Of a stretch of 64,000 nt of DNA, positions 26,055-58,353 are shown piece after piece. Location: contig NC_090291.1 in assembly GCF_037392515.1 (NCBI RefSeq), positions 689,501 to 753,500 of the forward strand, written 5' to 3'. The stretch's first letter is position 1; every line of letters begins with the position of its first letter. The translations under genes and the position numbers were made by a program. The notes beneath the pieces were generated by a model. The model was not told the DNA's origin. It did no database searches and saw nothing but the letters and a program-made list of their open reading frames with translations. Source of the stretch: Haliotis asinina. Taxonomy: Eukaryota > Mollusca > Gastropoda > Lepetellida > Haliotidae.

Positions 26055-29000
26055 TCAGAAGCTCTGTAATGAGGCCTGGATTGCTTCCTGCAGCATGGAC
26101 TCATCGTCATGTTCGTAGTCCTGCAAGTTTAGACAAAACACTTTGTTCAAGCATGCTGGTACATATCACTTGTGATATTCTAACATCGTTTAGTACACTG
26201 GACTCTATCAAGTGAAACATATGTTGTCTTTGGATTACACTTCATCAGTAAAGTACAGATTCTTGTACTTTAGTTGGGTTGAATCTATTCTAATATTTGA
26301 ACCCACTCCCTTTGAGTAAGGCACAACATCGCCACCACACACAGTCACCCACCTAACATGCTCAGCCCCTGTACCAAATGCCATATTTGGGATTACACTT
26401 TCTTAGTAAAGGACAATTTCTAGAACTTTTTAGGTTGAGTGCCATCCAGGATTTGAACCCACACCCTCAGTGTCAGGAGGCACCTCATCACCAGCACACA
26501 CAGTCAGCCACCTAACCTGCTCAGCCACTGCTGCCTACACAAAACTGGAAGTCTAGACATAGTGTACCAATCTGATTAGTGTAATTGTGTATTAATAACT
26601 CCATCAAGGCTGCAAACAAAGTGAAGCAACATCTTCAGTTTCCTAATTCCTTCATCTTGTCACTGACCAACACCATCATACAGATGCACAAACATAGCAA
26701 TATTTATCAAGGTACTCTAAGGGAGGGAGTGCTAGTGAGTATGTTTTTCTTTCAATTTTCTGCAATACTCAAGCAAGCTTCACACACTGTACCATGTGGT
26801 GTTCGAAATCCATGATGAGTCAATGATTTAACCATAAGGCTACCCACTCCTCATATCAAGGTACTAATTTGCCATAATTGGCCTAATTTCTCAAAGTCAT
26901 GGATTGTGACACATTCAACATCTGAATTAATTCGGAAGTAACTTTGCTAACAATTCTGTGACTCATGTCAGCATGAGGTTCATAATTTGAAAGTATATGT
27001 CACAGGTTCACCTCCATCTATCATGAGGAAATAACTCATGGAATTACATACACATTTGGTATTCAAACTTGTCTGTTTGCTTGTTGTTTTACGTTAAATT
27101 CTACAATATTCCAGCCAAATGATGACAGTCTGTAAACAATCAAACATGGCCATGACGCACCTGTCACAGGGTACACACAAAGAATCTAGGAAGCCTGACA
27201 ACTTCATACAATGCACTCCATTGATGAACAAAGGCTGTTTGGAGACAATTTCTGCTATAAGTGCTAAAAATATTGTACTTACGACATAAGTATCATATTC
27301 AAACTTGTGCCTGAGGTTGAGATGTTGCAAGAAATTGGCACTGACGCGTGATTTATCTCCCCATGGCATTGAGGCACACACCGGACACACCTGCAGCAAT
27401 GAAAGTGTCATTCAAGACAGTAACCATGGTAACAAGATCACCTGGTATTAAAAACAAAAGGAAACAAACTGTTGCAATAGTGCAGTAAAAGTTATAACAA
27501 ATGGTTGAAATACTTTCATTTCATGGAAATAGAAGTGCAAGTAAAATCTTAAATTCCATTGATTTATTATGATCATAATGGATATTTATATAGTGCACAT
27601 ATTCATGCAACAAGTGCTTGCTCAAGGTGTTGGTATTTGTCTCCCTTGATGACGGGATGTCACTCTCAAAGTCACATCATATTCACTCCAAGGTTTTCAC
27701 ATGCAGTCACAGGTGGGCTCGATCCTGCCACTTCAACCTCACGGAATCACTACACTGGAGCTTTAGCCAGCTCGCTCACCACATCCCCAGAGAAATTGAC
27801 ACTTCTCAGTCAAACAGACTGACTCATCTCAGTTCCTTAGGACTCACAGGGCTTCTGGGGTGGAGCAAGGCCATAAGTATTTCGTGTGTAATTTGTGGTC
27901 TATGAACGTGATTTACAATAATTACCATCAGCAGCTAATTTGTTGTGGGCAGTGTCGATGATGTGACACACAGGTAGACATTCATTGACAGCATACTCAC
28001 CACTTGTTGTGGGCAGTGTCGATGCTGTGACACATAGCTAGTCAGTCACTGACAGCATACTCACCACTTGTTGTGGGCAGTGTCGATGCTGTGACACATA
28101 GCTAGTCAGTCACTGACAGCATACTCACCACTTGTTGTGGGCAGTGTCGATGATGTGACACACAGGTAGACATTCATTGACAGCATACTCACCACTTGTT
28201 GTGGGCAGTGTCGATGATGTGACACACAGGTAGACATTCATTGACAGCATACTCACCACTTGTTGTGGGCAGTGTCGATGCTGTGACACATAGCTAGTCA
28301 GTCACTGACAGCATACTCACCACTTGTTGTGGGCAGTGTCGATGCTGCTCATTGCAATGTTTGACCAAGGCTAATGATTCCAAGTTCTTCTCCTCACAAT
28401 ACGGGCACTGGAACGTGGATCTGTTTGGGATATTGCTGAAACAAAGTAGGAAAGTGAGTGAGTGAGTGTGGTTTTATGCTGCTTTTACTAACATTTTTAC
28501 CAAAACCCGGGTTGTGCCAAGCAAACACCTTTTTGACTGGACTACACCACTACCTCAGAGGTGGGAAACACATAATCTCAAACCCAGGTTATGATGAGTT
28601 AACACCTTTTCCACTGGGCTACATCACTGCTCCATAGTTGGAACACACAGTCTCAAACCCAGGTTATGACAAGTGAACACCTTGTCCACTTGGCTACACT
28701 ACTGCCCCATAGTTGGTGAACACAGTCTCAGACAAGAGACTATTAGTCAACAAAGAAATACACTCAACAGGCTTTGGTACAATAACCAATACTCAAACAT
28801 TTCTTCTATAAATACTGAAGGATGATAACAGCTAAAATTCCAAACAATTAACAACAGTTTGATAATTCTCCTCAGTCTGCTGAAAAAGAGTTAAATACCC
28901 TTTACAGTTTTCTAATGTTTTTTTAACTGACTTCTTGCTTTATTTCATAAGACATTTCTAAAGAGAAATATTTTGTGTTAGAAGTCAGTACACATAAATG

Positions 29001-32000
29001 GACAATCACCCTTCCCACCACCACACCCGAAAAAGATGAAAAATTAGTGTATATCTACCTCCAATATGATATATCAACTTAACTTAAGCAGTGAAATCTC
29101 AGAGACAAATGACAGTGACAGAAATGCTGACAACCACTTCTCTTGTCACTACCTGGGTACTGGTTGTGACGTCTGCCGGACAGGCCGGAACTGAGGAATA
29201 CTGTGATCGGCACTGGTGCACTTCTCCATGTGGTCTCGCAGGTTATACACTGCCATCTGGTGAGCAAAACCAAACACTGAGTCAGAGGTGTGGTTTAATA
29301 AGCCTTTACAATTTCATGGCATGGCGCTGTGTGAGACATCTTGAGTAGGATTCCCTCATCAAACCCACTGAGAAATTGGACCCTTAGTGTCAGATTTGAC
29401 AACTGTGTGCTTTAACTACAAGGCTACCAAAACACCCCTCAAAGACAAAATGCGACATGAGTTTGGTTTAACACCTCTTTGGACCCTGATATCATCACAT
29501 GCCTCCTCTATGTGACAAGAAAACCTGAAGTGAAACAGGTCATCATAGGTATATACAAGCTCCGTGAAAGTCACGAACACACATCACCTCTGTAGTGTAG
29601 GTGGTTAAAATGTCCGCCCAGACAGCGGAAGGTCGTGGGTGTCATACTTGGCCTCATCTCACCACAAGATGTTGAAATAGCGCACTTGTTAGTGCACTTC
29701 ACATTAGTGGGTACAAGAAGGACTGGTCATCTCAGAACCAGTATACTGTGTCTGTGTGGGGTATTCATGCTTAACTGCAGCATGGTATCTCAGTGAACCA
29801 GCACTAAAAAACAACCTCATGTCTGGGCTAGTACAAGCAGCCACACATACACAAGCATGCCCACTGTCATATGAGGGAAACATGCTCATATATTGCACTG
29901 AACACATTTGACCTCACCTGAAGAAGACAGGTATAGTGTTGACAAACACAGAAACATAACTGCCTTAGACACATGTGTCCCTTACCTTTTTCCAAACAAT
30001 AATTAAAGCCATTGTCAATATTAAACCAGATATATGTGGTTTTACGGACAATTTACATCACTTATACGTATTTTTTCATCTTACCAAACACCTCAATTCT
30101 AATTTTGAACAGTTTGAAACAGGGTATTAGATTACCATGTATGATAAGGAGTACTGAAGATAGCTGAATATATTGCATGCATGTAAGGTTGCTGACTTGA
30201 TTTAAGGTAATTAAAACCTGATTTCATCTGGCAAAACCAGATTGCACTGGCTGGAGATTGAAAGGGTTTTACAGGGATTTACCTTGAGTCCTGTATTTGA
30301 GGGTCCCTGAAACTCAACCTCTTAATTTTCAGGGGTCCTAGACTACAAAAAGGGGTTCCAGACACTTAAATATTATTAATGATTCTATGCTATAATATTG
30401 TTGCAGTTCAGGAACTACCACTGCATTGTGTATCATGATCAACACAGTATTTCAACTGCAAATGATATCATAACCTAGCTAGTAGCAGACTCAGTGATAC
30501 CTTTTTGTTACTTGAAAAAACATAAAATAAAAAAGTGTTTTGACTTTTTCTGCATCCCTGTGGATGTGGTTATCTATTTCATTGCGTCCATTGTCAGTTT
30601 TTCTGCATATGGAACACAGGAATTTGCATCCTGTTAATCCCTGGTTTTATCAATCTTTAAATTACATATATTTATCATGTAGATCTCTCATGGAAAGATT
30701 CTTCATACATCAAACAGTAAACTACTGATCAGACTGACTCAACCACTATTGTACTATCTACCAACCTTCCTTCATTATTTGCAATTTGACTGAAAGCATG
30801 TGGTGTTTAAGACCAAATGGCAGTTTGCTGAATGTGTGTTTGTCATAAACTCAGATTACTGTTTTCAAACTTTTCAGTTCGCACTGACTTTCTATTTCAC
30901 AAGCATTGTCACTAAGGTGACATAATCCCCTGCCACATTTTATCAAATCAAACTTAAAAAGAAATGAAAGTGAAGATCGTAGTTTAAGATGAAGTAAAAT
31001 GTCAACAAAAACATTACTCTCAAACTCTCTTGATATCTTGCAATGTAGCTGTTCGAACACAAAAATATTCTGGAGAGTCACTTAGACCTTGACCAGCGTA
31101 TGAAACTCCTCAAAAATACAGTCGCTGCGACATTGAAAATTAAATGAAGGCCACCAAAATCGACTGGGCCGTGCACATTCCCTAGATTAAGCTTGATGTT
31201 GAATATGAAGAAATCCAGTAAACGGTTCTTCAGAAATCTCGCTGACAAGCTTAACATGCAGTTTACATGCTGAAATCTTCAAAATGTCGCCGTGATCTTG
31301 AATTATCTGAAGGTCACTAAAATTGACTGGGCCCTGCACCTTCCCTCGCTTAAGCTTGGCTCTGAATATGAAGAAAATCAAGTGAACAGTTCTTGAGATA
31401 TCTTGCTAACAAAATAAAAAGCTACAGTCGCCCTGTGACCTTGAGATGAAGCTCAAGGTCACTAACCCTGACTGATACCTTTCTTTCACTGTGATAAACC
31501 TAGATACTGAATAAGAAAAAAATCTAGTCAACGGTTCTTAAGATATTCTCATCTGTATGTACATATGCTGGACGGAGCCAAATACTACATTTCCCGCTTC
31601 ACGCTAAACACACACCGGTTGGATAACATACATATCCATCCATTAGAAGGGTACCCCTGAAGATCCTGGTTTGAATTAATCACTCATACTGGTTGCAAGA
31701 GGCGACTAAAGGTATCGGATGATCGGGCTCACTGACTTGATTGACCATTCCATCCCAATTTACATAGATCAATGCTCGTGCTGTTGAGTACTAGATTTTC
31801 TGGTCGAGACTTGATTATTTACAGACCACCACCATATGGTTGGAATCTTGCTGAGTGCCGCATAAAAGAAGCTCACTCACTCACTCACTCTTCTGAATGG
31901 TTCACTGTACCTGCTGTCCACACCACTGGCAGTTGGCTCGGTTTGTTCGCATGTTATTCTCAATGTCCAATGCCTTTTCCATTTGGCTGGGGTCAAATGG

Positions 32001-34772
32001 TGACCGACACTGCGGACATGTTGGTGGATGCACATTCTGTAGTCCTATGGCACAGCACTGACAATATCTGAAACCATCACAGTACAAACGATCACTTTGT
32101 GAAGTCTGATACAGCAGAGATTTGTTCTACACACCATCAACATCCCTCAACTCAATGTTTCTCTATCTCTCATATTACCTACTTTGAAGCACTGAAGCAT
32201 AAGATGCTAGCTTTTGAGTCATTGATTGGCTTTATGCCACTTTTAGCAATATTCCAGCAAAACCATGACAAGGGACACAAGAAATGGGCTTCACCCACTG
32301 TACACAAGTAGGGAATCAAACCAAGACCTTTGGTATGACAAGGGGATACTTTAACCACCAGGCTACAACACCACCACTGACAGGGTTTTACTTACTTACT
32401 TACTAACAACAGCCATAGCTGTCTTTGATATTTATTACTGAAGGGTACCTCTCAATGGGTTACCATAGAAACTGTGCTGTGTAATAAATGATATATGAAG
32501 TAGCCTTCAGACTTTCATTGCTTACTGGATGAAAATGTGTCTTGCATACAAAAGGACATACTGATCAGATGGATTCCGACTTTCAATGCCTATTGGTTTA
32601 CCATAAAAATAGGTCTTCTTTACAAAACCAAATAACAAGCAGGATTCCGATTTACACAGCCATGTGATTTTTGTACAAGTGCATCTATGTTGTGGTACCC
32701 TTCTGCAGCACAAGAGGCTGATCGCTGACTAGGATTACACAGATCATTGTATCCCAGTTGAGTACATTAATGCTTGTCGTTTTGATAACAAGATTGTCTG
32801 GTCTAGACTCAATTATTTACAGTCCATATACTTGGAATATTGCCAAGTGCAGCATCAAACTAAACTCACTCACTAATTCACAGGGATTTGTAACTCACAA
32901 ATCTAACATCAAAGTATATACTGTCAAAGACATGATACTGACACTATCCTTTGATACAGTGCTAAGACCTGAAGGATAGTGGTAAGAAGCTTTCAATGAC
33001 TAGAGGCACCTTGTGCTCCTGTGATAAACTTGTTGATTATAAAGATCGTCAGAATCAAACTCAAACTAAGGGAGGAAATGCAGGCAAGTTTAGTGTCACC
33101 TTGACAACTCTGACAATGGGTGACTTCTGGCAGACTTGCTGCTGAATGGTGTAAACTAATCATGGACAGACATGGACTTTCCTATGATTTCCAAAACCTG
33201 GGAACATTTTGCATTGGTCTGGTACCATCTGGGTACAAACAATCAAAACCCTCTATATGTTCTTGAGCACCAATGGTAAATATTCATATCAAATCGATCA
33301 TGCCTGTTCTTATTGACTACTTTAAACAAAGCCTGTTCTAGTTCAGCTAGCTAACATCGTGTGTCTTTGTTGGAACACGACGTTTAGCTAGCTGAACTAA
33401 GCCTAGTGTTACCTGAGGGTGTCGGGTGTTATACCCTTCTCCCTAGGCAATCTGTATTTCCTCCACTCTTTGTCTGGGGATGATGTAGTCAAGACGGTAT
33501 ACTCAAGGATAAGTCCAGTTTGGTGTTATAGTCCTTTTATTTTTGGTATTGTTTTTCACAAACAAAGGCCCTCAACTATTTCCTAGTTTCTGGTCTAAGC
33601 ACAACATTAGTTTACAACGTCCTGGAAGAACTTGTTGGTTTCTTGCACAACTTCTGATACTATAAGTTCATCTGAGCCATTCTCTCGATATACAGAGAGA
33701 ACCTCTCAAGTCAACGGTGGGGCCCAGAATCGCGCACCACTCACTGGACAACTAATAAAATAGAAGTCATGACAATTTAGGCTCCTCCCCCTGAAATAAT
33801 GTCCTACGTCATACAAAAATGACTCATACTCAATCTTAATAATTAGTTACTTTCATTAGTCCCTTTCTGAGACTTTATTGGTACCATCAAATTCTTCCAG
33901 TACCAAATATCTTCGCTAATTAACTTTAAGCCATCCATCAACCAAACACTGACATATCTGACAGAATAACAAATAATATTTCAAACTGATAGGCGCCAGA
34001 AGATATTTAAACAAATTATTTTCTGCATGTCCCTTTTATTGACAAACTGACCACTAATATCCGAATGTCCATCCGCCTAATCATGTAGAATTACAAAGTC
34101 CTAGTTTATGTTACTTCAGAGGAATTGTTATTCCCCCAAGAAAAGTGAGTCCATAAAAGTTCGGTTACTTGGTCAATGCACTTTCCCTGTACATTGAACC
34201 TTCTTACTTGACTTTAAATTTTCCTTAAATATTTGTAAAATGTATTTTAAGAATTTCAACTCTAAATGTCCTGGTTATACTAGCCTACTTTCTCTTTCTT
34301 AAAAAACAACAACAACAACAAAAACAACTGTCCATGTCAAAATGTTGACAATATGTAGTGTTGTAAAACAGTACTTCACAACAAGTATAAACCGAATGTT
34401 GTGTGTGAAGTTGAATTGCTTCCGCCACTGGTCCTGGTAGTTGGAAAAAATCCGAGCCTTACCAGTCCACAATATACATCAAAATATCTAAGCCGAATTG
34501 ACAACAGTTACTTGATATGCACCTATTCATTGAAAAATACTCGAAACGAATGAACACCGTTACAATTCGCGTATGATAACGGATACATGGAATGAACAAG
34601 GAAGATTATTGAGTGATCGAAAACTGAACACTTTCCCTTCAACATTGCCCGAAATAACACAGCAGACTCACACATGCTGAAAAGGACAGCCTATTCTGAC
34701 TGGCGACTGTAACAACTCCAGACAAACTGGACACTTGAAAGATGCATCAGCGTCTGAAGAACACTGGGCCAT
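26055..34772 (-). CDS. RNF166: RNF166-like RING E3 ubiquitin ligase, six exons
   Basis: Coding exons on the minus strand: 34672-34772, 31911-32067, 29153-29256, 28321-28435, 27283-27390 and 26055-26120. All introns are GT-AG and all phases agree, giving 216 residues (human about 237). Domains: RING finger (Cys14, Cys17, Cys29, His33, Cys36, Cys39, Cys51, Cys54), a C2HC finger (Cys80, Cys83, His95, Cys99), the motif [15 protein letters not shown] (115-129), a C2H2-like finger (Cys131, Cys134, His147), a Di19-type segment [13 protein letters not shown] (159-171) with [14 protein letters not shown], and a C-terminal ubiquitin-interacting motif [17 protein letters not shown]. The order and the NIPNRSTF and PWGD motifs identify the RNF114/125/138/166 family, closest to RNF166. 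Mammalian members ubiquitinate autophagy and antiviral signalling factors. The RING has three residues between Cys29 and His33 instead of the usual one. The start ATG (34772) has a strong context, but an out-of-frame ATG lies 8 bases upstream. Confidence 0.92.
26222..26535 (-). repeat. Two tRNA-derived SINEs of family C in RNF166 intron 5
   Basis: Two tandem reverse copies. Each carries TTTGAACCCAC (a reversed B box) and a CACACACAGTCAGCCACCTAA-like head. A third copy is at 50080-50205. They lie between the last two coding exons. Confidence 0.6.
26536..27282. other. Rest of RNF166 intron 5
   Basis: No further exon. Short SINE debris near 26770-26860 (TTCGAAATCCATGATG, ACCATAAGGCTACCCACTCC). 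Confidence 0.4.
27926..28373 (-). repeat. 64-bp tandem array duplicating an RNF166 splice donor
   Basis: Units start at 27990, 28054, 28118, 28182, 28246 and 28310, spaced exactly 64 bp; a degenerate first unit lies at 27926-27989. The unit at 28310 is the true end of coding exon 4. On the minus strand each complete unit reads CGACACTGCCCACAACAAGTG|GTGAGTATGC, that is, the last codons of the exon plus its donor. Two unit subtypes alternate (A,C,C,A,A,C from left to right, then the exon). See findings. Confidence 0.95.
28456..28735 (-). repeat. Family A SINE with a triplicated head, RNF166 intron 3
   Basis: Starts with a GTGAGTGAGTGAG run and a degraded tail. The reversed tRNA-like head (AACCCAGGTTATGA.. 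AGT..ACACCTT..CCAC.GGCTACA) is then present three times at about 80-bp spacing. It sits just upstream of coding exon 4. Confidence 0.6.
29578..29910 (+). repeat. tRNA-like SINE in RNF166 intron 2
   Basis: GTAGTGTAGGTGGTTAAAAT and GCGGAAGGTCGTGGGT resemble the A- and B-box halves of a tRNA. The tail is poorly defined. Confidence 0.4.
31090..31600 (+). repeat. Tandem repeat of about 150-bp units, three copies
   Basis: Recurring words are AAATCGACTGGGCC / AAATTGACTGGGCC, GAATATGAAGAAA and AACGGTTCTT, with ACCTTGA..TGAAGGTCA between them. A diverged mollusc-type dispersed repeat in RNF166 intron 2. Confidence 0.65.
31640..31890 (+). repeat. SINE, family B
   Basis: Forward copy beginning near CCCCTGAAGATCC, with GACTTGATTGACC, GAGACTTGATTATTTACAG and the tail TGCTGAGTGCCGCATAAAAG followed by a CTCACTCACTC run. 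It ends 20 bp before RNF166 coding exon 2. Confidence 0.75.
32214..32373 (-). repeat. tRNA-derived SINE, family A, RNF166 intron 1
   Basis: Reverse copy with ATTCCAGCAAAACCATGACA, GGGAATCAAACCAAGACC (reversed B box) and TTTAACCACCAGGCTA (reversed A box). Confidence 0.7.
32718..32880 (+). repeat. SINE, family B, RNF166 intron 1
   Basis: Forward copy with GATCATTGTATCCCA, GTCTAGACTCAATTATTTAC and the tail AATATTGCCAAGTGCAGCAT. Confidence 0.65.
33350..33740 (+). mobile_element. Candidate LTR and primer-binding site, RNF166 intron 1
   Basis: About 390 bp without coding sequence ends at TCAACGG followed by TGGGGCCCAGAATCGC, which has the form of an LTR end plus a tRNA primer-binding site. A short inverted repeat (AGTTCAGCTAGCTAA / TTAGCTAGCTGAACT) marks the left part. 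No second LTR or gene is seen. Fossil; weak call. Confidence 0.25.
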
Positions 34773-41569: not shown

Positions 41570-44500
41570 ATGAAGTGGACAAGCGCAGCATTGGCATTTT
41601 GTGGAGCGCTTGCTGTACTGTACCTGGGCGAAGCTTGCAATGAGGCGATTTGTGCAAGCCGGGTCAGCAAGTGCATGCTGATCAAATGTTGCGAGTGCAA
41701 CATGTCGGATAAAAAGAACTGTACGTGTTGCCGAGACTGTCAGGTTTGTTTGGCAGACCTGTATACAGAGTGCTGTTCATGTGTGGGTAAGTCAAGCTTA
41801 GTTTTTGCAACTGCTATCTAAACGTTCTAGTCAAATTTAGATTCCTGTATAATACCCAGAAGGCATTTACGAAAAGCTTAACCAGGTCAGCTGTAACCCC
41901 AGTGAGAGGTCATAGCATGGGACTTATTTTGCGGTTGTTAGTGTTGTTGCTGTTAGAATAATGGATGCCTGCTTACATTTGGCATTTTATATTTACTTCC
42001 ACTTGACTTATGTTTAACCTTAATTTCTGTTGCAAGAAATATAACACATGTTCAATACATGGGCAGTATCACAGGGGCTTGTAACGCTGAAAACTGCCAT
42101 CAAGGTATATATCGTCCCTAATAGTAGTAATACAACATTAGGGACAATATATACCTTGATGGCAGTTTTCATCATTACAAGCCCCTGTGTTCAGTATGAA
42201 TGCGGCAATCCTGATTGCCTTGTTGACCTGGAATTTGTAAGAACTCTCAGTTATGGTAGCGTTGTTATTTTCTTGCTATGGCATACCGTACGATTGAATG
42301 ACACTGTCAAGTGTTGAGAACTGAAGACAAGTAGTAAATCTAATTTGCTTTACTATTAAAAATCATTTATCAACTTTGTTGTGATTAGTAATATCATCAT
42401 GTTTTAAACCAAATCATCTGTAACTTCTATCAATTTGGATACAAGGAACAATAACTTAACGAAAAAAAAGTTGCCATCTTAAAACATGCCACACAGTTTG
42501 CTGCCGTGTGCAGGATGAAGCTGGACAATATGTCATACAAGGTTTACAATATCCAGAAGTTATTGCAAAGATGAATACTTTAATATTTCAACAATTAGAC
42601 ATAACATTCCAAAGAAACAAATAACCTTTTCATGAGCGACAAGATTGTTAAATGTAGTGTCAGTCTAAGTAAACTTAGTCTCAGTGTATTTTGTTACACT
42701 CCACCACTGAGTCTAACAAAACCTAGTAGAAGGTCACGTCAGGTAACCTTTGAGCGACCAATGACCATCCAATCAAACACGAGACGGTTAAATAGATTTA
42801 ACCAATCAGATAACGGCTACTATTTAGGGGTCGGAGGAATTTTCAAAATATTCACGAATATTGCCCAAAACACCATTTTCAGCGACTGTTAACTCACCGT
42901 TGTCATGGTTGTATGTAAGCCGTGTGCATCACCCAGAAGCAAGTGTAAGCTAAATAGCATTCGGAATCATTCGGGTATGAACCTTTTCGAGATAAAAAGT
43001 TCAAAAGGTATGTGCGAATGTCCACTTTCGCGATTTGTTAAGCTGTGTTCTGATTGGTCAATCTCAAAGGTTACGTGATGCGACCTCTCATAAGGTTTTG
43101 TTAGACTCAGTAGTGGAGTGTAACAAAAAGTACTGAGACTAAGTTTACTCAGACTGATGTAATGTGCATGTGTAAGGAGACGATGCGGGGCATGGTGTTC
43201 CTGCTTTTCCAATGTTTCCATGTACCCCAGTGTTTTCGTGTGCTGCGATAGTAGAGTCCCATTATACTAGCTGCCATATGCATATTTAACACATCCAATA
43301 ATATGGAACATGTGGTGGGAGCACAACTATATCAGTCAGAACCTAAAGTGGTGCCTTTAGCCATGTACAATTTTTTTGTGATTTATTACTTTCTCGGTTT
43401 CCGTGGAAACGTTTTGGACATAGTCTCAAAAGTGAGATGTGTGTTTCATTTCCAGAGCAGAACTCAATAATTTCTTAATATCTGTTAGTAAAACTTTCTA
43501 GATATGTGTGTGGTAGACCCCAAAGTGGTGCCTTTTGGTTTGTAAAGGTATTTGTGATGTATTATTATGCCCCCGGCATATGATGCTGGGGGATATAGTC
43601 GACGCCTCGTCTGTCCGTCCGTCCGTAATTATTTTGTTTCCGGAGCATAACTCAGAAACCGTTCAATATTTTTAAACCAAACTTGATAGATATAGTAACC
43701 TCAGCCTATGGTTGTGCCTTTTGCTATTTACAGATTTTTGGCATTTATATGTTTTTTGTTTTTCCATGGAACATTTTGGTGTTACTCTTGGGTGGGCTTT
43801 GTTTCCAGAGCAGAACTAAAAAACCATTCAATATTTTTCTGCAAAACTTGGTAGATATATCAGTCAGAAGCTGAAGTAGTGCCTTTTGCTATGTACAGGT
43901 TTTTGTGATTTATTATTTTCTCGGTTTCCATGGGAACGTTTCGGACATAATCTCAAAAGTGAGAGGTGTGTTTCATTTCCGGAGCAGAACTCAAAAACCA
44001 TTCAATATTTTTCTGCAAAACGTGGTAGATATATCAGTCAGAAGCTGAAGTGGTGCCTTTTGCTATGTACAGGTTTTTGTGATTTCTTATTTTCTCGGTT
44101 TCCATGGGAACGTTTCGGACATAGTCTCAAAATGGAGGGATGGGCTTTGTTTCCAGAGCAGAACTCAAAAACCATTCAATATTTTTCTCCAAAACTTGGT
44201 AGATATATCAATCTGAACCTATAGTGGTGCCTTTTGGTATGTACAGGATCTTTTGATTTATTATTTTCTCGGTTTCCATGGAAACGTTTCAGAGGGGTGG
44301 GCTTCTTTCCCAGAGCCCAACTCGAAAACCATGTTACATTTTTCAACAGATCTTGGCAGATATATGAAATTGTGACTTTGCTGGTTACAGATATATGGCA
44401 TTTATTATTTTCATGAATTCCATGGAAACAATTCAAACTTAGTCTATTCAAACTGACTCTTGTTTTTATTTACCTTTACCATCCCAAAATGGACTTAAAC

Positions 44501-46567
44501 AGACCAGATATGGTGAATTTACCCAGATGTATGAAACAAGTTATTTAAACTTTTTCCAAACCATTGTGTGGGCAAGTTGTAAATTTAGTGTTAGTAAAGT
44601 TGAGTGGTCGGACGAGCCTTATTTAATACACTGTGCCCATCGACCTATAACCTCATCCCAATTCACATGGCCCTGCCTCCATTCAAACCATTATGGTGGC
44701 CAAACTCATAAATGTTGTTGTTTGTCAGGCCTCTGTCCCCCACCAGACCCCAACATGGATCTCTACAAGACCAGCTCCATTGAACGTCTGGGAGACCCTA
44801 TTCCAGATCTGTTCAATGTCCTCACCGAGATACCAGACTTCCAGCAGCGTTGGGTGACTTACACGTACCCCCGTCACCAGCCAGAGGAATCATTCTTAAA
44901 CAATGGCTCCAAAGACTTGAAGTACACCTTCACTATAGGTAAGGATAGGGGTGGTTTGAGCATTTGCGTTCATTTTAAGTGTATTTCTTATTTGTCAAAC
45001 ACATGAACATCTGGGGTAGGATAGGATTTTTTCAAACAATGCTTGCCACAATTGGTGATGATGCTTGTCATAAGAGGTGGCTAACACGATTGGGTCCGAC
45101 TCGTTGACTTGGTTGACACCGGTCTTCGGTTCCCACTTGTGCAGATAGCTGCTCATGCTGCTGATCACTGGATTGTCTGCTTGAGACTTGATTATTTACA
45201 GACCGCAGCCTTATAGCTGGAATATTGCTGAGTGTGGTATAAAACTAAACTCACTCACTTACGTACTATACTATGTCAGAATGTGTCACCATTACTCTAT
45301 TGTTGATTAGGTGTCATATACATCCTCTTTCAGGTGGCCGAAGCACAATGTTCAAGATGTTTGTTTATCCAGGATATATTACTGTGTTTACTGTCTCTCA
45401 TGATAAAGTCAGTTAAGTAACATGTTTTGTGATGCAAACATTGGCCTGCCTCTTTGATATCTGCTGCAAGATGACAGTATCCGTGCTTACTCTGGATTCA
45501 AGCAGCATACACACACTCTTTTTGTCATCCAGATGATTTGCATGTCCACCTCATGCACAGTATTTATTTGAAAACGGAAGAGCATTGGCAGAGCCGAAGC
45601 TAGTGGCTGTGGTTTGTCAGATTGAAACAAAGCTTCACTGCCTATTGTAGAAGCCCATAACCATTATCTTTCTATGTCATGCTCAGGTGATGCTTGTGTG
45701 TAGAGTTGTGTCCCTTGGTCATTTAACAAGTTTCTGAAAATGTTCCCAATGTGTAAATTGAATAACTCAAAGTAAGGCTTCACCAACTGTTGTAGCAAAG
45801 CTGTTGATATTCTAGAACAATCTGGAGTCCCTTGTTGTAACCATGATGACATCTGTTTTAGTGAAGGTCAGGGTTACAATTGGCCTTCAGTAACCCATGC
45901 TTGTTGTAAGAGATGAGGAATGTGATCGGGTTGTCAGGCTTGCAGTCTTGATTGACACATGTCATTGTATACCATTACCAGTAGTATAGAAGCTGGATCA
46001 CTGGATGTCTGGCCCAGTCTTGATTATTTACGGACTGCCATGTGGGATATTGCTGAGAGTGGCGTAAAAAAAATCAACCAGCTGATACTGGGATAGACCT
46101 TGTTTGACACATCCAACTCCCAGGTTCCGTTTCCTATTTGGGTGCATCATCATGGAAAGTCTCTTGTTACTAGTTATGATGTGAAAATCCTACAGGGCCG
46201 CACTGTCATCCACTCACATCAAAATATTTTATTTGCAGGAGAGGATGAAAAGAAATTTGCATCCAAACCTGAAGAGGATGAGAACAAGAACTGTACCGTG
46301 GCATTCTTCTCGCAGTGTATGTCTATACACAAGTGCAAAGCTTCCTGCAAGTCCATGGGTGCCGCCAAGTACCGCTGGTTCCATGAGTATGGGTGCTGTC
46401 AGTGTGTTGGTGACGTTTGTGTCAACTACGGCCTCCCCGAACCCCACTGTCTCAAGTGTCCACCTCCAGATGAGATTGCTGAATCTGACATCACAGTAGA
46501 ATATGCAGAATCTGGGGTGAAGGTTGGCATGAATGAAGAGGTCAAGGTGGCAGTGGATGGCCTGTGA
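41570..46567 (+). CDS. TWSG1: Twisted gastrulation (TWSG1), secreted BMP modulator, three exons
   Basis: Exons 41570-41786 (donor G|GTAAGT, phase 1), 44729-44938 (acceptor TTTGTCAG, donor G|GTAAGG, phase 1) and 46239-46567 (acceptor TTTGCAG, stop TGA) join to 251 residues (human 223). A signal peptide (MKWTSAALAFCGALAVLYLG) is followed by the N-terminal Cys-rich domain CNEAICASRVSKCMLIKCCEC...CTCCRDC.VC, which binds BMPs. The C-terminal domain with NCTVAFFSQCMSIHKCKASC and SMGAAKYRWFHEYGCC is the chordin-binding half. Twisted gastrulation acts outside the cell with chordin to adjust BMP gradients in dorsoventral patterning. NCT and NMS glycosylation sites lie in the N-terminal domain and NCT in the C-terminal one. 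Beyond the usual end the protein adds about 35 acidic residues (from PPPDEIAESD). The ATG at 41570 starts directly before the signal peptide; an upstream in-frame TTG is not used as start. Confidence 0.95.
42070..42189. repeat. 53-bp near-perfect inverted repeat in TWSG1 intron 1
   Basis: Arms 42070-42122 and 42137-42189 (CACAGGGGCTTGTAA ... ATTAGGGAC) match with about four mismatches around a 14-base loop. CAGTAT occurs on both sides (42064-42069, 42192-42197), a possible target duplication. It could be a foldback MITE that forms a hairpin in the intron RNA. Confidence 0.9.
42661..43156 (+). mobile_element. hAT-like MITE, copy 2 (496 bp)
   Basis: Same family and orientation as 8325-8821. 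Ends are CAGTCTAAGTAAACTTAGTC and its reverse. Flanks ATGTAGTGT / ATGTAATGT form a 9-bp duplication with one mismatch, in the hAT/MULE range. Non-coding; in TWSG1 intron 1. Confidence 0.8.
43340..44450 (-). repeat. Dispersed tandem family, about 180-bp units, five to six copies
   Basis: Recurring block: GTGGTGCCTTTTG, ATGTACAGGTTTTTGTGATT, TCTCGGTTTCCATGG.AACG, CAGAGCAGAACTCAAAAACC and TTGGTAGATATATCA. One unit contains a GCCCCCGGCATATGATGCTG hairpin and GTCCGTCCGTCC. Related monomers in the opposite direction are at 16805-17005 and 52130-52500. Confidence 0.75.
45030..45265 (+). repeat. SINE, family B, TWSG1 intron 2
   Basis: Forward copy with CATAAGAGGTGGCTAACACG, GTTGACTTGGTTGACAC, GAGACTTGATTATTTACAG and tail TGCTGAGTGTGGTATAAAAC. 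Confidence 0.75.
45870..46075 (+). repeat. SINE, family B, TWSG1 intron 2
   Basis: Forward copy with CAGTAACCCATGCTTGTTGT, CAGTCTTGATTATTTACGG and tail TGCTGAGAGTGGCGTAAAA. It ends about 160 bp before coding exon 3. Confidence 0.75.
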
Positions 46568-58020: not shown

Positions 58021-58353
58021 CATTGTTTACGTCTAGCGTGCGGCATGGTACACACGGCGGGCATTGTTTACGTCTAGCGTACGGCATGGTACACACGGCG
58101 GGCATTGTTTACGTCTAGCGTACGGCATGGTACACACGGCGGGCATTGTTTACGTCTAGCGTACGGCGTACGGCATGGTACACACGGCGGGCATTGTTTA
58201 CGTCTAGCGTACGGCATGGTACACACGGCGGGCATTGTTTACGTCTAGCGTACGGCGTGGTACACACGACGGGCATTGTTTACGTCTAGCGTACGGCATG
58301 GTACACACGACGGGCATTGTTTACGTCTAGCGTACGGCATGGTACACACGACG
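58021..58353. repeat. 41-bp minisatellite, eight copies
   Basis: Unit GCATTGTTTACGTCTAGCGT + ACGGCATGGTACACACGGCGG, copied eight times without spacers; the fourth copy has an extra 7 bp (ACGGCGT-type duplication). Late copies share CACACGACGG where early ones have CACACGGCGG, so variants are ordered along the array. CpG-rich. Confidence 0.95.

What the first reader, a model, noticed from the sequence alone, without database searches (positions are those of the whole stretch)
27926..28373. A 64-bp tandem array multiplies a working splice donor in RNF166
Six consecutive 64-bp units each contain the last 24 bases of RNF166 coding exon 4, its donor GTG|GTGAGT, and flanking intron. Only the unit joined to the exon body (28310 on) can be the normal exon end; the other five are decoy donors downstream. 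Using a decoy adds 64 bases per unit and, after the real exon end, reads VSMLSVTD and stops, so most decoy use would give a protein lacking the Di19 and UIM parts. The two unit subtypes alternate in blocks, suggesting growth by unequal exchange. An array in which coding sequence and a splice site are the repeat unit is unusual.
Basis: seen in the sequence. Interest (0 to 1): 0.75.

Follow-up and report, generated by a model that had tools for sequence, protein, structure and literature searches.

The report
Abalone splice-donor minisatellite, a "mirage"
In an abalone gene, a 64-base stretch covering the end of an exon and its splice site is repeated six times in a row; similar arrays are known from lancelets, and splicing probably ignores the extra copies, so it is a neat but largely ordinary case.

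Summary
On the minus strand, six complete 64-bp units (28344-27961) plus a 21-nt remnant (27960-27940) repeat the last 24 nt of RNF166 exon 4, its donor GTG|GTGAGT and 34 further intron bases. Units run A B B A A B from the exon; A and B differ at 6 of 64 sites, units of one type are identical. All six donors are identical. Only the first (28320) gives the 216-aa protein, 100% identical to a named Haliotis asinina RNF166-like record. All five decoys give the same 167-aa product ending [11 protein letters not shown]-prone.

The kind is known: minisatellites spanning exon-intron boundaries, 'mirages', are described in amphioxus genes, and transcript data there suggest that they leave regular splicing intact. 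Exon 4 has flanking introns of 717 and 930 nt; in published exon-definition minigenes with two identical strong donors the upstream one was used exclusively. Most likely the decoys are nearly silent and the array is a recent, tolerated minisatellite. I found no earlier mollusc case in the library searched. No RNA reads or other abalone genomes were reachable; the own-genome search did not complete in 10 attempts.

The parts
28321..28435 (-). RNF166 coding exon 4 (115 nt), normal end at donor 1
   Evidence: acceptor and donor read; translation matches named H. asinina protein P0001
28281..28344 (-). Unit 1, type A: 24-nt exon tail (28344-28321) + authentic donor (first intron base 28320) + 40 nt of intron in all
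28217..28280 (-). Unit 2, type B: decoy donor at 28256
28153..28216 (-). Unit 3, type B: decoy donor at 28192
28089..28152 (-). Unit 4, type A: decoy donor at 28128
28025..28088 (-). Unit 5, type A: decoy donor at 28064
27961..28024 (-). Unit 6, type B: decoy donor at 28000
27940..27960 (-). Partial seventh unit: 21 nt of exon tail, no donor
27391..28320 (-). Intron 4 when donor 1 is used (930 nt)
34672..34772 (-). RNF166 coding exon 1
31911..32067 (-). RNF166 coding exon 2
29153..29256 (-). RNF166 coding exon 3
27283..27390 (-). RNF166 coding exon 5
26055..26120 (-). RNF166 coding part of exon 6, to the stop codon (66 nt)

Best explanation
A minisatellite whose 64-bp unit happens to span the 3' end of RNF166 coding exon 4 and the start of intron 4: a molluscan 'mirage'. 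Shown: its structure, the six identical donors, and the coding consequence of each donor. Inferred: it grew by duplication and unequal exchange or conversion, recently (zero differences within unit types). The spliceosome defines exon 4 from its acceptor to the nearest strong donor (28320), because exon 4 sits between long introns (717 and 930 nt) and all six donors are equally strong. Units 2-6 are therefore removed inside intron 4. Occasional decoy use gives a stop codon ending 27 nt past the exon end and a message expected to be destroyed by NMD. On this reading the array is tolerated rather than functional.
For: Array anatomy. The donor-1 protein is 100% identical over 216 residues to the named H. 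asinina RNF166-like protein, the only one of 95 listed hits (128 candidates) with Haliotis in its displayed name. A 167-aa product lies inside the length range of that search and none was listed with Haliotis in its name, though clustering at 90% identity could hide it. The H152-to-C161 spacing across the junction is ungapped in 19 of 19 aligned homologues (19 of the 95 hits were aligned). U1 duplex energy is -11.1 kcal/mol for all six donors, rank 2-7 of 702 GT sites in the gene. Introns 3 and 4 exceed 250 nt. In exon-definition minigenes with two identical strong donors the upstream one was used exclusively (PMC9225289; abstract). [quoted passage not shown] PMC3902484). A polymorphic intronic minisatellite is described in another abalone gene (PMC6905558). 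An array of this size placed at random in this gene covers at least one splice boundary in 27% of trials and exactly one, as here, in 14%.
Against: No RNA evidence was available. The named protein is a database record, not a junction count. Under intron definition the classical rule favours the intron-proximal donor (here unit 6), and the same paper's all-event data, before matching donor strength, lean downstream in all four intron classes. The decoys have stayed intact: 0 of 6 A/B differences fall in the 30 exon-tail-plus-donor positions (P 0.018 if independent; 0.036 for any circular window of 25). All three AG dinucleotides that follow the donor in type A are absent from type B (P 0.015 or 0.031 by direction of change, chosen after the fact). 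Both could be read as selection. The published minigenes have two donors, not six, and abalone splicing rules are assumed similar.
Confidence: 0.78

Rival explanations
1. A working dosage control: decoy donors capture part of the transcripts into non-productive mRNAs (alternative splicing coupled to NMD), and unit number, which may vary between individuals, sets how much full-length RNF166 is made.
For: All six donors are identical and strong. Every decoy leads to the same premature stop, 145-401 nt upstream of the exon 5/6 junction, so decoy use would be NMD-prone. Minisatellites vary in copy number in an abalone intron and in amphioxus mirages. No A/B difference falls in the exon tail or donor.
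Against: The exon-centric proximity rule predicts near-exclusive use of donor 1. Amphioxus mirages are reported not to produce aberrant mRNA. No decoy isoform appears under its own entry in the protein search, although clustering could hide one.
Confidence: 0.08
2. A nascent microexon. Type A units end in ...TGTGTCACAG, so an acceptor after intron copies 1, 4 or 5 plus the next donor defines a 24-nt in-frame exon that inserts a second HRHCPQQV.
For: The sequence permits a 224-aa open product: exon 28088-28065 (232-nt upstream intron) or 28024-28001 (296 nt). A branch-site-like CTGAC lies upstream (motif recalled). Mirages have been proposed as a route to new introns and exons.
Against: Weak acceptor: pyrimidine fraction 0.53 and longest pyrimidine run 2, against 0.59-0.82 and 4-7 at the five true acceptors. 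The first possible intron is only 40 nt. The insert would lengthen a zinc-finger linker that is ungapped in 19 of 19 aligned homologues. B units have no AG there.
Confidence: 0.04
3. Assembly artefact: a shorter true array was expanded or shuffled by misassembly.
For: Tandem repeats are often misassembled; PMC3087553 notes that one mirage haplotype appears aberrantly assembled in the amphioxus draft. The own genome and raw reads could not be examined, and the sequencing method is unknown to me (one search found 0 papers).
Against: The period is exactly 64 throughout, with two clean unit types in non-periodic order. The array is about 405 bp, well within a long read. The named protein lies on a 58-Mb contig. 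Unit number could still be off.
Confidence: 0.08

Closest known systems
'Mirages': minisatellites spanning exon-intron boundaries in amphioxus genes (Adh3, globins BflGb6 and BflGb9, troponin C, PGBD5)
   Same: Tandem units that carry an exon end, its splice site and adjacent intron; many units keep splice signals; BflGb6 shows concerted turnover; both boundaries of an exon can be involved, and BflGb9 duplicates the 3' boundary of an exon as here.
   Different: Here a mollusc (abalone), the RNF166 gene, a 64-bp unit (Adh3 10-72 bp; the two globins 150-160 bp), all six donors identical. Transcript and polymorphism data exist for amphioxus, none here.
Internal tandem repeats at exon-intron boundaries in human segmental duplications (PMC2812944)
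   Same: Minisatellite-sized repeats at exon-intron boundaries.
   Different: There RNA-supported variants with novel introns are documented; here no transcript data, and the gene is not shown to lie in a segmental duplication.
[quoted passage not shown] potato RdRp, ATP2A1; PMC4974935)
   Same: Duplication of a segment holding splice signals.
   Different: No new intron is evident here; the named protein is unchanged.

Membership tests
Mirage (exon-intron boundary minisatellite) | Tandem repeat units that span an exon-intron boundary | tested here: met
   24 nt exon + 40 nt intron per unit, 6 units + 21 nt
Mirage (exon-intron boundary minisatellite) | Minisatellite-sized unit, several copies | tested here: met
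   64 bp, 6.4 copies
Mirage (exon-intron boundary minisatellite) | Units carry splice signals as potential cryptic sites | tested here: met
   identical donor in 6 of 6 full units, 0 of 1 in the partial unit
Mirage (exon-intron boundary minisatellite) | Regular splicing not disturbed | tested here: inconclusive
   named protein equals the donor-1 product; no RNA reads available
Mirage (exon-intron boundary minisatellite) | Length instability among alleles or in soma | not testable with these tools
   needs other individuals; own-genome search unanswered
RNF166 E3 ligase family | RING and Di19-type zinc fingers, overall homology | tested here: met
   P0001 100% identity; the next 12 hits (P0002-P0013), all molluscs, 50-56%; zf-Di19 58.2 bits; RING residues C14 C17 C29 H33 C36 C39 C51 C54 invariant in 19 of 19 aligned, though no RING Pfam model reached 0.001 for this protein
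Intron gain by tandem duplication | A new intron formed from the duplicated segment | tested here: not met
   protein unchanged. The exon 4/5 position looks old: in 6 of 7 partial environmental ORFs (P0089-P0094) unrelated, intron-like sequence runs into the same residues, and P0095 starts there. Against: P0088 runs from exon 4 into exon 5 without a break, so the intron is not universal

The most novel reading that the evidence does not exclude
A variable-number array of identical strong 5' splice sites acts as a rheostat for RNF166: U1 bound at downstream copies diverts a fraction of transcripts to NMD, and unit number, changing by unequal exchange among individuals, tunes the level of this ubiquitin ligase, with the decoy donors kept intact (and acceptor-like AGs lost from B units) by selection or by conversion from unit 1.
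Probability: 0.07. Interest if true: 0.7.

Novelty: new member of a known kind. Interest (0 to 1): 0.35.

Why it matters
It extends the mirage phenomenon, found in this library for lancelets (plus human boundary repeats), to a mollusc, suggesting that it may be general in animals with minisatellite-rich introns. Six identical donors in series are a natural test of exon definition: which of several equal 5' splice sites is chosen, and why. It also warns gene annotators and short-read splicing studies that reads from such arrays map ambiguously. If decoys are used, it would be a natural copy-number dial for a gene.

Tried and rejected
Local RNA structure as the selector of donor 1: rejected. All six donors have similar predicted accessibility (mean unpaired probability 0.18-0.38, donor 1 0.22), and the units are not unusually stable (z -0.21 for A, +1.02 for B). 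Donor strength as selector: rejected, all equal (the duplex program was not forced into the splicing register). Mobile or dispersed repeat: no second copy of the unit elsewhere in the 64-kb window (best other match 12 bp, E 0.39); the rest of the genome was not searched. Rfam: 0 matches at gathering scores in the window. Constraint on decoys: suggestive statistics only, which treat six differences of one A/B split as independent and were partly chosen after seeing the data. Microexon: kept as a weak rival. PMC12783039 (earthworm metallothionein, passages): intronic minisatellites and untranscribed fourth-exon duplications, no repeated splice boundary in the passages seen. PMC5896119 and PMC3045353 (passages): no boundary array in the passages seen. 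Structure prediction, structure searches and contig-collection scans were not run: they do not bear on splicing of an animal gene.

Literature seen: PMC3087553, PMC3902484, PMC12783039, PMC4974935, PMC2812944, PMC6905558, PMC5896119, PMC3045353 passages only; PMC9225289 abstract and passages. The amphioxus Adh paper (PMC117041) and PMC1783408 are not held and were not read. No mollusc case was found in searches, judged from the listings and the papers opened; one search found 0 papers for the assembly-method terms.

Full report
What is there. On the minus strand the end of a coding exon is followed by a tandem array. Six complete 64-bp units start at 28344, 28280, 28216, 28152, 28088 and 28024, and a seventh copy at 27960-27940 stops after 21 nt, before the donor. 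Each full unit holds the last 24 nt of the exon and the first 40 nt of the intron, with the donor GTG|GTGAGT. From the exon outward the unit types are A B B A A B. A and B differ at positions 40, 44, 47, 51, 54 and 64; three A units are identical and three B units are identical. TRF gives 6.4 copies, 94% matches, score 690. The unit has no other copy in the window (best other match E 0.39).

The gene. Exons at 34772-34672, 32067-31911, 29256-29153, 28435-28321, 27390-27283 and 26120-26055 join into a 216-aa protein. It is 100% identical to a protein named E3 ubiquitin-protein ligase RNF166-like of Haliotis asinina, a cluster of 5 member sequences with a 58-Mb contig, so the window very probably comes from that species. 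Pfam gives zf-Di19 at 128-188 and nothing else at 0.001. The RING cysteines and histidine are invariant in 19 of 19 aligned homologues (19 of 95 hits aligned). The exon 4/5 intron position looks old: in 6 of 7 partial environmental ORFs, unrelated intron-like sequence runs directly into the same V-C-P residues and the seventh starts there. Against this, P0088 runs from exon 4 into exon 5 without a break, so the intron is absent in at least one source.

What each donor would give. Donor 1 (28320) makes a 115-nt exon and the full protein. Donors 2-6 make exons of 179, 243, 307, 371 and 435 nt, and all give the same 167-aa product ending VSMLSVTD*, because the stop lies in the first (type A) intron copy. 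The stop is 145 to 401 nt upstream of the exon 5/6 junction, so NMD is expected by the usual 50-55 nt rule (recalled). The truncated product would keep the first zinc-binding half of Di19 and lose the second half and the C-terminus.

Why decoys are probably silent. All six donors pair with the U1 5' end at -11.1 kcal/mol, among the best 7 of 702 GT sites in the gene and stronger than the true donors of exons 1, 2, 3 and 5. Predicted RNA structure does not single out donor 1. Position does: exon 4 is flanked by introns of 717 and 930 nt. In five minigenes with flanking introns of 365 nt and two identical strong donors, the upstream donor was used exclusively; with both donors weakened, the larger exons were mostly skipped and the smaller kept the upstream preference (PMC9225289). 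The authors conclude that exon-defined exons choose the donor closest across the exon. The same paper reports the opposite rule for short introns, and a downstream preference in all four classes before strength matching, which counts against certainty. [quoted passage not shown] PMC3902484 says that Adh and troponin C mirages do not generate aberrant mRNAs, and suggests the same for PGBD5.

How unusual. Arrays of period 10 or more cover 2051 of 64000 bases (16 of the 22 TRF rows were entered; 4 with period under 10 and 2 redundant ones were left out). With 10 splice boundaries in this gene, the chance that at least one is covered is 0.28, or 0.23 if this array is left out. A 408-bp array dropped at random into the gene covers at least one boundary in 27% of trials and exactly one in 14%. 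This ignores selection, and one window is a small sample, but it shows that a minisatellite on a splice site needs no special cause here. A polymorphic intronic minisatellite is reported in an abalone TSSK1-like gene (PMC6905558, passages).

Evolution (inference). Two unit types 9% apart but without variation inside a type suggest an older duplication that diverged, then recent spread of both types by unequal exchange or conversion. No A/B difference falls in the exon tail or donor (P 0.018 for 30 positions; 0.051 for the exon tail alone; 0.036 for any circular window of 25). Three of the six differences (positions 40, 51, 64) are the G of an AG: type A has three AGs after the donor, type B none. 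Six random changes in positions 31-64 would clear all AGs from A in 1.5% of trials, or give B three or more in 3.1%; this was noticed after the fact. Conversion from the constrained unit 1, selection, or chance could explain both patterns.

Microexon alternative. The AG ending type A copies would allow a 24-nt in-frame exon, HRHCPQQV, giving a 224-aa product. The acceptor is weaker than all five true ones (pyrimidine fraction 0.53 against 0.59-0.82; longest pyrimidine run 2 against 4-7), and none of the 19 aligned sequences has an insertion there.

Verdict. It is a new member, probably a first molluscan one within the library searched, of a known kind: the exon-intron boundary minisatellite or mirage. 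Whether the decoys do anything remains untested, because no RNA reads and no other abalone genome were reachable and the own-genome search did not complete.

Noticed in passing
28503-28730: A second tandem array (75 bp x 3, about 80-85% alike) lies in intron 3, 67 bp upstream of exon 4, so exon 4 sits between two minisatellites.
   Followed up: partly
1-2860 (approximate end): A tandem repeat of period 929 bp, about three copies, in which the unit carries a 290-aa ORF with an rve integrase core domain (Pfam PF00665; the ORF is listed complete in two copies): an integrase gene amplified in tandem.
   Followed up: partly
46097-46567 (+): ORF matching the Twisted gastrulation conserved region (PF04668, 106.9 bits): a Tsg gene in the same window as RNF166.
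   Followed up: no
28281-28344 and other A units: Three of the six A/B differences remove the G of an AG dinucleotide, so B units have no AG after the donor while A units have three.
   Followed up: partly
43793-44290 and 58021-58350: Other sizeable minisatellites (174 bp x 2.9 and 41 bp x 7.9); not checked against exons.
   Followed up: no
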